A DNA stretch of 32,532 nt from an uncultured Bacilli bacterium (GTDB taxonomy: Bacteria > Bacillota_I > Bacilli_A > RF39 > UBA660). Below are positions 28,255 to 32,498 of the stretch, piece after piece. A program made the translations under genes and the position numbers. Below the pieces are notes generated by a model. That model did not search any database. It was not told the origin of the DNA and saw only the letters and a program-made list of their open reading frames with translations. Position 1 is the first letter of the stretch. Each line of letters opens with the position of its first letter. The DNA lies in the NCBI GenBank assembly GCA_944359065.1, contig CALVSP010000010.1, positions 1-32,532 on the forward strand. The letters are read 5' to 3'.

Positions 28255-29049
28255 TTAAGCGCTAAAATACTTTTGCATATTTTTAAATGTCATAATTGAT
28301 AGTTGTTGAATTGTCTCATTAAATAATTTAATATCACCAATTTCTAATGGATTATTCTGATAATCAGTATCAATATTTATCTCTTCAATAATAGCATAAT
28401 AAGATAATTTTTGACTTTCATTGATATTAACTGGCGGATAATTATTTTTTATCAACTCATAATTCATAATAAGACGCGCTACTCGACCATTACCATCACT
28501 AAATGGGTGAATATTAACTATAGCCATATGTAATTTAATAGCTCGTTCAAAAACAGTTAAATTTTGCCAATCATTTTCATATTTTTGTTTTAACTCTTCC
28601 ATTCTTTTAGAAACTAAACTAGGTTTAGTAAAATTTATTTCTTTACCATTACTATTTATTAAATAATTTTCTTTTATTTTATATTCACCTGCATTTATTA
28701 TGATATCTTTACCAATAATAAAATGAATATTTTTAATCACTTCAATAATATCTAAATCTTTATTTAATATATCAAAAATATATTTGAATGCATTTTGATG
28801 ATTTATAGTTTCATTAATTTCTCTTTTTTTATGTTTATCTTTAATATCTAAATTATAAGTATTATTTAATATTTGTCTTGTATCATTAAGGGTTAAAGTC
28901 ATATTTGTTCCTTCAATACGATTAGAATGAAATGTAAATAAAGTTCCAAATTCATTTATTAAATAATCATAATATTGTTTTTTTAAGTTATCATTAAAAT
29001 TAGTAATCTTATTTTGTATTTTAGCTAAATCAAATATTCTATCTAACAT
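28255..29049 (-). CDS. Fic-domain protein, class II (intrinsic inhibitory helix)
   Basis: 264 residues. The Fic core motif HPFSDGNGRVAR (181-192) is complete, with catalytic His181. The inhibitory motif (S/T)xxxE(G/N) is seen as SNRIEG at 42-47, N-terminal to the core, which defines class II. In this family the Glu blocks ATP use until relieved. Most members transfer AMP to a protein; the target is unknown. No antitoxin gene is adjacent, as expected for a self-inhibited Fic. Ribosome site TGGAGGAA; a TGATATACT extended -10 element lies about 25 nt upstream. Confidence 0.92.
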   Translation of the reverse strand: MLDRIFDLAKIQNKITNFNDNLKKQYYDYLINEFGTLFTFHSNRIEGTNMTLTLNDTRQILNNTYNLDIKDKHKKREINETINHQNAFKYIFDILNKDLDIIEVIKNIHFIIGKDIIINAGEYKIKENYLINSNGKEINFTKPSLVSKRMEELKQKYENDWQNLTVFERAIKLHMAIVNIHPFSDGNGRVARLIMNYELIKNNYPPVNINESQKLSYYAIIEEINIDTDYQNNPLEIGDIKLFNETIQQLSIMTFKNMQKYFSA

Positions 29050-29238
29050 AAAATTCCTCCATAACTAATAATAGTATATCACATTAATAAACAAATAAAT
29101 AATTTTTTAACAATATTATCTTTAAATATTAAGTCCACTTATATCAAATACTTTACTTATCATATTATTGCCTATATTACTATAAACCTTATTTTCTAAA
29201 GTAATTATATCATTTTTAATTTATTTAATCAATATAAC

Positions 29239-29267
29239 TTGAAATTAACTTAAAAATATGTTACTAT
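29239..29267 (+). promoter_or_regulatory. Promoter of the putative antitoxin RNA
   Basis: TTGAAA (29239-29244), 17-bp spacer, TACTAT (29262-29267) with TG before it (extended -10). It points toward the toxin-like gene from the opposite strand, with transcription starting near 29274. No open frame with a ribosome site follows, so the product is probably an RNA. Confidence 0.65.
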
Positions 29268-29273
29268 GTATAT

Positions 29274-29390
29274 AGATGTGATTTACATCATATAATAAAA
29301 AGGTAATGCTTGATTTAGCTAGTTAAGTATCTACCATAAGTTTGGCGTAGATACCTAATCTATGTTGATGATTAGGTATCTTATTTTATT
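29274..29390 (+). ncRNA. Putative antisense RNA (antitoxin) of a par/Fst-like locus
   Basis: Predicted RNA of about 115 nt between the promoter at 29239 and the bidirectional terminator at 29350-29380. It contains hairpin GTATCTAC/GTAGATAC (29327-29334 with 29347-29354). Its 3' half is fully complementary to the 3' end of the minus-strand toxin mRNA. In addition GTAGATACCTAA (29347-29358) is complementary to the toxin leader just upstream of its ribosome site (29497-29508). This two-point pairing is how RNA II of the enterococcal par locus controls Fst translation. The role is inferred; no expression data are available. Confidence 0.55.
29350..29380. terminator. Shared bidirectional terminator of the convergent pair
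   Basis: GATACCTAAT (29350-29359) and ATTAGGTATC (29371-29380) form a perfect 10-bp stem with an 11-nt loop. T-rich sequence follows on the plus strand (TTATTTTATTT). The toxin stop codon abuts it on the minus strand. Both RNAs must end here and so share complementary 3' hairpins. Confidence 0.8.
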
Positions 29391-29473
29391 TCTATTATGA
29401 TTAATAGAGTTACTAATAAAATGATTATAATTAATAAAAATATATTTATTATAAATACATCTTTTTTAGTCAT
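29381..29473 (-). CDS. 30-residue hydrophobic peptide, candidate type I toxin
   Basis: Too short for standard gene calling. It starts with MTKKDVF, then a helix of almost only I, L, V, F (residues 6-27), and ends EIK. AGGAGG lies 9 nt before the ATG, one of the strongest ribosome sites in the window. That site is the 3' arm of a hairpin (29483-29497). Charge and length are like Fst/Ldr and TxpA-type membrane toxins, though I see no clear match to a named family; the Fst-type proline and Arg-rich tail are missing. It lies between fic and sigK and has its own promoter (29531-29559). Confidence 0.65.
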   Translation of the reverse strand: MTKKDVFIINIFLLIIIILLVTLLIIIEIK

Positions 29474-29482
29474 TTTATCAAT

Positions 29483-29497
29483 CCTCCTTTCAGGAGG
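29483..29497 (-). promoter_or_regulatory. Hairpin that hides the toxin ribosome site
   Basis: On the minus strand CCTCCT (29492-29497) can pair with AGGAGG (29483-29488) across GAA, covering the whole Shine-Dalgarno. A similar stem keeps fst mRNA from early translation. It lies directly beside the 12-nt target of the antisense RNA. Confidence 0.7.
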
Positions 29498-29530
29498 TAG
29501 ATACCTAACAATCTTGCATTACCTATATAA

Positions 29531-29559
29531 ATTACATCATGAAATTAATTATATGTAAA
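29531..29559 (-). promoter_or_regulatory. Promoter of the toxin-like gene
   Basis: Minus strand: TTTACA (29554-29559), 17-bp spacer, TGTAAT (29531-29536); transcript start expected near 29524, giving a leader of about 50 nt. The -10 box is less perfect than that of the antisense RNA, as in other type I loci where the antitoxin is made in excess. Confidence 0.55.
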
Positions 29560-29562
29560 TAA

Positions 29563-30255
29563 TTAATTTTTATTTTGCATTTTAAATTCTTTAAATATTT
29601 TAGTTAACGCTCTTTTTTCAATTCTTGATACATAACTTCTTGATATACCTAATTGCTTAGCTATTTCCTTTTGTGTTACTTCATCATTATTATTTAATCC
29701 ATATCTTTTAATAATAATTTCTTTTTCTCTTTCATTTAAAACATTAAAATATTTTTTTAATAAAACAATATTATCTTTTTTCTGAATATCATTTTCAAAA
29801 TCAGGTTTTGGAGTCTTTAATATATCTAAAAAGGTTATTTCATTGCCATCTTTGTCAAAACCAATTGATTCATTTAAACTAATATTTTTATTATTTTTTT
29901 TATCACTTCGATAATACATCAATATTTCATTTTCGATACATTTAGCCGCATATGTAGTTAACCTTGTTCCTTTTTTATAACTAAAGCTATCAACACCTTT
30001 AATTAAACCAATTGTCCCAATACTAATTAAATCGTCGACATCATTTTTTTTATGATCATATTTTTTTACGATATGAGCAACTAATCTTAAGTTATGTTCA
30101 ATTAATTTATTTCTTGCTTCTTTATCACCCATATGCATTAATGATACATATTTTTCCTCTTCTTCTTTTGTTAATGGATCAGGAAATACATTATTAGAAT
30201 AAGCGGCTGTAAAAATATAAAAGTCTTTAAATAATTTTTTTAAAAATTCTAACAT
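29563..30255 (-). CDS. sigK: Sporulation sigma factor SigK
   Basis: 230 residues from the ATG at 30255 (GAGGTG ribosome site; the in-frame TTG four codons earlier is within that site). Group 3 sigma-70 protein of the sporulation class. Region 1.2/2: NNVFPDPLTKEEEEKY, then ARNKLIEHNLRLVAHIVKKY, DVDDLISIGTIGLIKGVDSF and GTRLTTYAAKCIENEILMYY. Region 4: LNEREKEIIIKRYGL and the HTH TQKEIAKQLGISRSYVSRIE. It is most like SigK, the late mother-cell factor, with SigE as the alternative. A short N-terminal hydrophobic stretch (FYIFTAAYS) fits a pro-peptide. A SigE/SigK-like CATAAAAT lies 17 nt upstream of the ATG. The gene is uninterrupted, but a truncated second copy is at 32096. Confidence 0.9.
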   Translation of the reverse strand: MLEFLKKLFKDFYIFTAAYSNNVFPDPLTKEEEEKYVSLMHMGDKEARNKLIEHNLRLVAHIVKKYDHKKNDVDDLISIGTIGLIKGVDSFSYKKGTRLTTYAAKCIENEILMYYRSDKKNNKNISLNESIGFDKDGNEITFLDILKTPKPDFENDIQKKDNIVLLKKYFNVLNEREKEIIIKRYGLNNNDEVTQKEIAKQLGISRSYVSRIEKRALTKIFKEFKMQNKN

Positions 30256-30379
30256 ATCACACCTCAATTAAATTTTATGTTTTTACTTTCAAAACTATTA
30301 AAACTTTAATTTTGTAGTAAAATCTTGTGATACCACAAAAATTTAAAACTTAATCATATCAAAAAAATATCAAAAAAAA

Positions 30380-32095: not shown

Positions 32096-32431
32096 TTATA
32101 GTGTGAACATTATTTTTTCAGTAGATTTAGCAACATATCTTGTTCCTTTTTTATAACTAAAACTATCTACTCCTTTAATTAAACCGATCGTTCCAATGCT
32201 GATTAAATCGTCAACATCATTTTTTTTATGGTCGTATTTTTTAACAATATGAGCAACTAATCTTAAATTGTGTTCAATTAATTTATTTCTTGCTTCTTTA
32301 TTCCCCATATGCATTAATGATACACATCTTTCCTCTTCTTCCTTAGTTAAAGGATCAGGAAATACATTATTTGAATAAGCAGCCGTAAAAATATAAAAGT
32401 CCTTAAATAATTTTTTTAAAAATTCTAACAT
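32096..32431 (-). pseudogene. Truncated second copy of sigK (N-terminal half)
   Basis: From the ATG at 32431 (same GAGGTG site) the first 98 residues match SigK at 29563 with only three changes by hand count (K-Y to R-C, D to N). About 26 nucleotides differ over about 320, nearly all silent. After GTR a 9-nt deletion removes L-T-T, then Y-V-A-K-S-T-E drifts away from YAAKCIE and the frame stops at 111 residues. Regions 3 and 4, needed for the -35 element, are absent. The copied segment includes about 28 bp upstream of the ATG. It is either a recent relic or an expressed fragment. No sigK C-terminal half is found downstream. Confidence 0.8.
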
Positions 32432-32498
32432 ATCACACCTCAATTAAATTTTATGTTTTGTATAATTGTCAATGATGTGAAACAAAAATTTCAATAAA

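What the first reader, a model, noticed from the sequence alone, without database searches (positions are those of the whole stretch)
29239..29559. Compact convergent locus with the full logic of an Fst/par type I toxin-antitoxin system
Five independent elements fit together. (1) A 30-residue hydrophobic peptide with a strong ribosome site (29381-29473). (2) A hairpin that masks that site. (3) A 17-bp-spaced promoter for it and another, stronger one on the opposite strand (29239-29267). (4) A shared bidirectional terminator. (5) A 12-bp direct repeat that gives the opposing RNA exact complementarity to the leader beside the ribosome site. Seen directly: repeats, stems, promoters, ORF. Known: this architecture describes the enterococcal par/fst locus. 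Inference: that it acts as a toxin-antitoxin here. The peptide does not look like Fst itself, so it may be a new toxin family, lodged beside a sporulation sigma factor.
Basis: partly seen in the sequence, partly recalled or inferred. Interest (0 to 1): 0.8.

Follow-up and report, generated by a model that had tools for sequence, protein, structure and literature searches.

The report
A new RNA-controlled toxin-antitoxin family
A stretch of about 320 bases in an uncultured bacterium looks like a gene for a tiny membrane peptide, probably a toxin, facing a small RNA that should silence it; many copies of this pair occur in related bacteria, yet it matches no toxin or RNA family in the libraries searched here.

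Summary
The anatomy is real: one copy of a family of convergent peptide/antisense-RNA units. An RNA model finds the antisense RNA in 16 of 18 genus and 207 of 291 family genomes, often in several copies, but in one genome outside the family in a class sample of 395. The peptide is under purifying selection. In the genus, peptide genes lacking the RNA lie at contig ends (6 of 72), whereas 4 of 73 strong RNA matches have truly lost the peptide. A type I toxin-antitoxin is the best reading; toxicity is untested. The Fst/par label fails: no Fst signature, no credible Pfam or Rfam match, no shared bidirectional terminator. Instead there are two one-way terminators, and the toxin mRNA's leader pairs with its own 3' end (42 of 42 genus mRNAs, 31 of 31 testable ones from other genera), as described for aapA and hok. 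That pairing includes 53 G-U cells on the mRNA strand, which would be mismatches on the other. Verdict: a new variant of type I toxin-antitoxin, Fst-like in layout, hok/AapA-like in mRNA folding. Its place beside sigK (11 of 18 genus genomes) is local.

The parts
29381..29473 (-). toxin-like ORF, 30 aa, MTKKDVFIINIFLLIIIILLVTLLIIIEIK (hydrophobic core, basic ends)
   Evidence: its class has dN below dS
29293..29524 (-). inferred toxin mRNA (RNA I), about 230 nt
   Evidence: promoter and T-run positions by sequence; no transcript data
29531..29559 (-). inferred toxin mRNA promoter TTTACA-17-TGTAAT
   Evidence: sequence; aligned by eye with TTGAAT-17-TATAAT of paralogues; not listed by the scan
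29483..29497 (-). hairpin CCTCCT-gaa-AGGAGG holding the Shine-Dalgarno sequence
   Evidence: folded; not distinguished from shuffles by the count
29496..29524 (-). mRNA leader strand of the 5'-3' clamp
29302..29335 (-). mRNA 3' strand of the 5'-3' clamp (complement of RNA II hairpin 1)
29293..29301 (-). U-tract taken to end the toxin mRNA
   Evidence: a run of 4 to 7 A on + stands here in the 37 aligned units (one interrupted by a T)
29239..29267 (+). antitoxin RNA promoter TTGAAA-17-TACTAT
   Evidence: aligned with TTGACA-17-TACAAT of many paralogues
29274..29392 (+). inferred antitoxin RNA (RNA II), about 119 nt
   Evidence: model R1 match 29266-29392, 78.5 bits (this unit is among the 37 rows R1 was built from)
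29269..29294 (+). RNA II 5' stem-loop (its outer pairs lie before the inferred start at 29274)
   Evidence: fold; stems with changed letters in paralogues, by eye
29302..29335 (+). RNA II hairpin 1
29349..29381 (+). RNA II hairpin 2, its terminator stem, followed by TATTTTATTT
29347..29358 (.). direct repeat copy 1, in RNA II
29497..29508 (.). direct repeat copy 2, in the toxin leader beside the ribosome site

Best explanation
It is a chromosomal type I toxin-antitoxin unit of a new family. One promoter makes an antitoxin RNA of about 119 nt (RNA II) with three stem-loops. The opposing promoter makes an mRNA of about 230 nt for a 30-residue membrane peptide. The full-length mRNA is held shut: its leader pairs with its own 3' end (some 25 pairs), next to a hairpin over the ribosome site. 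RNA II is antisense to the 3' part of the mRNA and also has a short stretch complementary to the leader. Most likely the clamp keeps new mRNA silent, 3' trimming opens it, and RNA II captures the opened mRNA through the 3' part and the leader, blocking translation and marking it for decay. Shown here by comparison of sequences: the peptide is a maintained gene, the RNA II fold, the mRNA clamp, and that toxin genes stand beside antitoxin genes. Inferred: transcription, toxicity, trimming, order of binding and decay.
For: Paralogues in the own genome and genus, tandem at about 350 bp. RNA II: in 37 sequences 80 cells changed on both sides against 26.4 in shuffles; in 52 matches from 46 sources 17 of 21 pairs have such changes against 8.6 (alignment fitted to the model). 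Clamp: in the minimum-energy fold of 42 of 42 genus mRNAs, against 4-17 of 42 with shuffled leaders; none of 2000 permutations of leader and 3' end pairs as well, overall or within classes; 31 of 31 testable mRNAs of other genera against 6.2 expected; 44 cells with two-sided change against 13.8 in 24 of the 42 mRNAs. Strand: 53 G-U cells in the clamp on the mRNA strand (my sum of the table) and many in hairpins 1 and 2 on the RNA II strand; on the opposite strands these would be A-C. Peptide: mean dN/dS 0.08 (29-aa class), 0.22 (window class), 0.44 (SKR class) and 0.44 (three 31-aa forms) in the genus; 0.10 and 0.27 in loci L137-L182, picked by motif. Pairing of genes: 66 of 72 toxin matches in the genus have RNA II beside the stop; the other 6 lie within 77 nt of a contig end. 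Of the 73 strongest R1 matches (of 109) 7 have no toxin: 3 at contig ends, 4 truly lost. Outside the genus 9 of 46 uncut matches lack an intact toxin (by eye).
Against: No transcript, toxicity or binding data. On A1 the number of pairs with two-sided change (10) is not above shuffles (8.6; 81 of 500 as high) and pair types are fewer than in shuffles (22 against 25.8); in the clamp the same two measures are likewise not above shuffles (6 against 4.3, 15 against 17.0). Many changes follow class lines, so independent events are fewer than cells. Hairpin 1 as an mRNA terminator is weak in the window class (-2.8 to -7.2 kcal/mol on the mRNA strand, against -9.3 to -12.5 in the 29-aa and 27-aa classes), so where this mRNA ends is uncertain. 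The ribosome-site hairpin is not supported by its count. Leader and RNA II 5' part might be alike by descent from an inverted duplication. Nonsynonymous single changes outnumber synonymous ones in the window class (10 to 7) and in SKR (270 to 171), though less than expected without selection. Searching by RNA II cannot show toxins without RNA II outside the genus.
Confidence: 0.8

Rival explanations
1. A small regulatory or structural membrane peptide under antisense control, not toxic at natural levels.
For: Only sequence was studied; nothing here measures toxicity.
Against: Tandem multiplication, and loss of the peptide with the RNA kept but not the reverse in the genus, fit a harmful peptide better than a useful one.
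Confidence: 0.13
2. A true member of the Fst/par family with a diverged toxin.
For: Same layout: opposing promoters, hairpin at the ribosome site, direct repeat, mRNA of about 230 nt.
Against: No W, P or G in the peptide; Pfam Fst_toxin over cut-off in 0 of 18 genus genomes (also 0 of 14 control genomes, so the control shows no positive); no Rfam match in the window stretch; no bidirectional terminator; antitoxin about 119 nt against the about 40 nt given for pAD1.
Confidence: 0.03
3. A mobile repeat whose ORF and stems are incidental.
For: Multi-copy and tandem.
Against: Selection on the peptide; two RNA structures whose G-U pairs lie on opposite strands; nine orthologues at one site beside sigK, itself 92-100% identical among them.
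Confidence: 0.02

Closest known systems
par/Fst of plasmid pAD1 (Enterococcus faecalis) and its chromosomal relatives
   Same: Convergent layout, small hydrophobic peptide, hairpin at the ribosome site, a repeat that makes the antitoxin complementary to the leader, mRNA of about 230 nt (PMC7472228: abstract, introduction and passages seen).
   Different: Peptide lacks the Trp/PxxxG/charged-tail signature; antitoxin about three times longer and antisense to the whole mRNA 3' part; two one-way terminators instead of one shared; a long 5'-3' clamp of the mRNA.
aapA/IsoA (Helicobacter pylori) and hok/sok (plasmid R1)
   Same: Full-length toxin mRNA closed by pairing of its 5' and 3' ends, with a local hairpin at the ribosome site in aapA (PMC6733600: abstract and passages seen).
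   Different: Peptide unlike any library family over cut-off; layout here is convergent with the RNA overlapping the mRNA 3' part, whereas the antisense RNAs of those systems overlap the 5' part (recalled).
txpA/RatA and bsrG/SR4 (Bacillus subtilis), CD2517.1-RCd8 and like loci (Clostridioides difficile)
   Same: Overlapping convergent antisense RNA (C. difficile: PMC6563280, passages seen; B. subtilis layout recalled).
   Different: C. difficile toxins have 50-53 residues; no Pfam or NCBIfam family over cut-off for these peptides, though I did not check that those libraries hold a model for each of these toxins.

Membership tests
type I toxin-antitoxin (general kind) | small hydrophobic peptide that is a maintained gene | tested here: met
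   mean dN below mean dS in six of six sets
type I toxin-antitoxin (general kind) | antisense RNA gene paired with the peptide gene | tested here: met
   66 of 72 toxin matches with RNA II beside them, 6 misses at contig ends; sequence only, no transcript
type I toxin-antitoxin (general kind) | peptide is toxic and the RNA neutralises it | not testable with these tools
   needs expression experiments
Fst/par | Fst toxin signature (Trp after the membrane helix, charged C-terminus, mostly PxxxG) | tested here: not met
   no W, P or G in the window peptide; PF13955 over cut-off in 0 of 18 genomes, and in 0 of 14 controls
Fst/par | shared bidirectional intrinsic terminator | tested here: not met
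   no T-run on the - strand after 29349-29381; the kept T-run lies after hairpin 1
Fst/par | direct repeats giving RNA-RNA complementarity at the translation start | tested here: inconclusive
   one exact 12-bp repeat beside the ribosome site, in 35 of 1000 shuffles; over 42 units none of 2000 permutations pairs as well
Fst/par | 5' stem-loop hiding the ribosome site | tested here: inconclusive
   perfect hairpin in the window; site mostly paired in 23 of 42 against 29.2 in shuffles
Fst/par | match to a described antitoxin RNA family | tested here: not met
   no Rfam match up to E 10 in window 28900-29900; five matches far below gathering scores in four paralogue loci
aapA/IsoA and hok/sok | 5'-3' long-distance pairing of the toxin mRNA | tested here: met
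   by folding and covariation
aapA/IsoA and hok/sok | related toxin | tested here: not met
   no Pfam, NCBIfam or PHROGs family over cut-off; that models for these toxins are held was not checked

The most novel reading that the evidence does not exclude
One antitoxin-RNA architecture has spread over several dissimilar membrane peptides within one bacterial family: the TKKDV, SKR and KKKDL peptides, a KQTEK peptide and a 22-residue MQLIV peptide all face an RNA with the same 5' stem-loop and hairpin 1 (by eye; weaker R1 matches). The RNA's 5' half resembles the toxin leader, so leader and RNA II compete for the same mRNA 3' end. That would be a modular toxin-silencing RNA with exchangeable toxins, in ten or more copies in some genomes of 1-1.5 Mb.
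Probability: 0.45. Interest if true: 0.75.

Novelty: new variant of a known kind. Interest (0 to 1): 0.6.

Why it matters
It would add a large, unlabelled type I family in a lineage known here only from assembled metagenomes, where such short genes are easily missed. It joins two regulatory ideas that are usually described apart: the convergent Fst layout and the hok/AapA closure of the toxin mRNA. Many tandem paralogues with diverged leaders are natural data on how RNA-RNA specificity changes, and antitoxins kept beside decayed toxins allow tests of addiction on a chromosome.

Tried and rejected
Pfam, NCBIfam, PHROGs and PADLOC gave nothing over cut-off for the peptides. Rfam gave nothing in the window stretch; a weak rli28 match to the MQLIV paralogue (E 6.5) I treat as chance. 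PDB sequences: one match at E 0.97, not used. Mobile DNA: an exact 25-base pattern from paralogues gave 0 in viral contigs, and one paralogue unit (L037) gave 0 in phages and plasmids; the window unit itself was not run there.

Rejected: the shared bidirectional terminator; a second RNA II promoter at TATAATAAAAAGG (it is the mRNA T-run read backwards); the C27 locus as an orphan antitoxin by rule (toxin present in 6 of 9 genomes, gone or truncated in 3, by eye); ribosome-site pairing as statistical evidence.

Rows dropped: from 72 ORF rows (several loci overlap) to 43 units: second starts beginning MIMKK, short flanks, identical copies. 42 distinct mRNAs. 37 of 39 distinct RNA II entered A1 and R1. 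24 of 42 mRNAs entered A4. One search used the 73 R1 matches of 74.9 bits or more out of 109; the 36 weaker ones are largely sister units, of which looked at 20 loci plus L040 or fewer strong ones. One search counted 32 intact toxins of 51 matches; five more were added by eye; 4 are cut by contig ends and 10 lack an intact toxin, one of these (L148) in the genus. One search was given 33 of the 37 intact units; two were skipped by the script. Copy numbers are lower bounds (12 candidates scored per genome).

Full report
What was checked. The finding lies between a sigK gene (29563-30267, -; SigK equivalog TIGR02846, 307.8 bits, cut-off 298.65) and a Fic-domain gene (28255-29049, -). The stem is not a bidirectional terminator: on the - strand it is followed by ACGCC. 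In the window alone the evidence is modest: promoter-like sites are at chance level, and the repeat and the stem occur in 35 and 9 of 1000 shuffles.

A repeated family. The 341-bp stretch has relatives in the own genome, some in tandem about 350 bp apart. In a DNA search 18 of 18 genus genomes match at E 0.01, though many of these matches are short. ORFs at the matching place encode related peptides of 26-33 residues of MTKKDV, MSKR and MKKKDL types; the odd ends lie at contig ends or look frame-shifted. I aligned 43 units. Two sister sets, with 22-residue MQLIV peptides and with MKQTEK peptides, share the promoter and the first half of the antisense RNA, by eye.

The antisense RNA. In the RNA II direction 37 sequences give two hairpins with 21 pairs, 99.4% of cells paired and 80 cells changed on both sides against 26.4 in shuffles; two other measures are not above shuffles (pairs with such change 10 against 8.6, pair types 22 against 25.8). 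A 5' stem-loop precedes them. Hairpin 2 is followed by a T-run. A covariance model, R1, matches 16 of 18 genus genomes at E 0.01; in three of these (G007, G010, G013) only at E 0.003 or weaker, and the two of those that I read (L200, L201) are MQLIV-type sisters. It matches 207 of 291 family genomes and 115 of 150 genera, and 210 of 288 genomes of an order sample at E 0.001, where every listed match is in the same family. In a class sample 34 of 395 genomes match, 33 of them in the family; the other, G586, holds a complete unit. Eleven family genomes have 12 matches, the number of candidates scored. Over 52 matches 17 of 21 pairs vary on both sides against 8.6 in shuffles (an alignment fitted to the model).

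The toxin mRNA. A run of 4 to 7 A just before hairpin 1 is a T-run for the opposing mRNA. If the mRNA runs to it, it is about 230 nt long and its leader is complementary to its own 3' end. In the window the minimum-energy fold closes the whole mRNA this way, at -74.9 kcal/mol. At least 8 such pairs form in 42 of 42 genus mRNAs (13-30 pairs), against 4-17 of 42 when the leader is shuffled. Cognate leader and 3' end pair at -34.5 kcal/mol on average against -24.8 over all combinations; none of 2000 permutations is as good, overall or within classes. It also holds in 31 of 31 mRNAs that could be tested from other genera and one named record, against 6.2 expected (5' ends placed by a simple rule). 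Over 24 of the 42 mRNAs 97.9% of cells pair, 44 cells changed on both sides against 13.8 in shuffles, and sliding the partner by 1-3 columns drops pairing to 38.5-45.5%; the number of pairs with two-sided change is not unusual (6 against 4.3, 74 of 500 shuffles as high). Fifty-three cells are G-U on the mRNA strand; on the other strand they would be A-C. Hairpins 1 and 2 show the like on the RNA II strand. So the clamp fits selection on the mRNA and the hairpins fit selection on RNA II. Hairpin 1 itself is a poor terminator stem on the mRNA strand in the window class (-2.8 to -7.2 kcal/mol), so the mRNA end needs mapping.

Leader and RNA II. The leader also pairs with the RNA II stretch before and in hairpin 2: -19.0 cognate against -15.2 over all, none of 2000 permutations as good. 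In the window this is the exact 12-bp repeat; in the other classes, by eye, it is shorter and has G-U pairs. The hairpin over the ribosome site is perfect in the window and its near relatives, but the count of paired ribosome sites is no higher than in shuffles (23 of 42 against 29.2). These data support the clamp strongly, the leader contact moderately, and the local hairpin only by its neat form.

Is the peptide a gene, and a toxin? Mean dN and dS are 0.054 and 0.703 (29-aa class), 0.012 and 0.055 (window class), 0.087 and 0.197 (SKR) and 0.030 and 0.068 (three 31-aa forms) in the genus. They are 0.057 and 0.579, and 0.204 and 0.758, for two sets picked by motif from loci L137-L182, which are mostly of other genera. 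Seventy-two toxin matches in 18 genomes include 66 with RNA II beside the stop codon; the six others lie within 77 nt of a contig end, where RNA II would be cut off. Of the 73 strongest RNA II matches (of 109) seven lack a toxin: three at contig ends, four truly lost or broken. Outside the genus, of 50 matches 4 are cut by contig ends, 37 have an intact toxin (32 by script, 5 by eye) and 9 do not, by eye. In the genus, then, no toxin was seen without RNA II except at contig ends, while RNA II is seen without toxin. A harmful peptide predicts that. It is not a measurement of toxicity.

Place in the genome. Nine orthologues at 91-100% identity lie just downstream of sigK in nine genomes, with the Fic gene beside five of them. 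Diverged units lie at the same site in G013 and G004, and seven genus genomes show none there. In a named rumen record, CACZQZ010000042.1, a unit lies upstream of sigK. Of ten flanking ORFs scanned at other units seven had a Pfam match: TPR, TsaD, DUF362, a nucleotidyltransferase, a Schlafen-type protein, acetate kinase and Dus. A role in sporulation is therefore not indicated.

Comparison with what is known. The par/Fst description has convergent promoters, one bidirectional terminator, two direct repeats, a hairpin at the ribosome site and an antitoxin of about 40 nt (PMC7472228, introduction); its toxins carry Trp, a charged tail and mostly PxxxG (passages). The present unit shares the layout but not the toxin, the terminator or the antitoxin size. 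Closure of toxin mRNA by 5'-3' pairing, with activation by 3' trimming, is described for aapA/IsoA and hok (PMC6733600, abstract and passages). Searches listed no paper that by title or abstract describes this family; I opened three papers, and the library lacks most subscription journals. That the host lineage is the order RF39 is my recollection, not shown.

Verdict. A real and widespread new variant of type I toxin-antitoxin; the steps after transcription, and toxicity, remain inferred.

Noticed in passing
window 32096-32443 (-): A truncated second copy of the sigK gene (first 113 residues, 93% identical, same sequence just upstream), also in G008; two zinc-ribbon ORFs lie between it and the full gene.
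   Followed up: partly
L213, L215, L216, L217, L218 (sigK loci of G012, G005, G011, G003, G010): The sigK match holds one TGA in frame in five of 18 genus genomes; whether it is a real break, recoding or an effect at the end was not examined.
   Followed up: no
L041:340-540 and 717-900; L191-L196, L200-L202: A sister family with a 22-residue MQLIV-type peptide, an overlapping upstream ORF and an antisense RNA with the same 5' stem-loop and hairpin 1 but an AAACACCG/CGGTGTTT terminator.
   Followed up: partly
L040:480-620 and L183-L190: A further sister unit with peptide MKQTEKCLFLIIILLIVIILIMLI and more; in the own genome, G001 and G008 the toxin is gone or truncated and the RNA kept, by eye.
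   Followed up: partly
L172 (G586): The only unit found outside the family in the class sample, complete with an SKR-type peptide; transfer and assembly contamination were not told apart.
   Followed up: no
window 28255-29049 (-): The Fic-domain neighbour matches PADLOC candidate defence models (PDC-S04, E 3.8e-36; SoFic, E 5e-18) and is beside the unit in 5 of 9 genomes.
   Followed up: no
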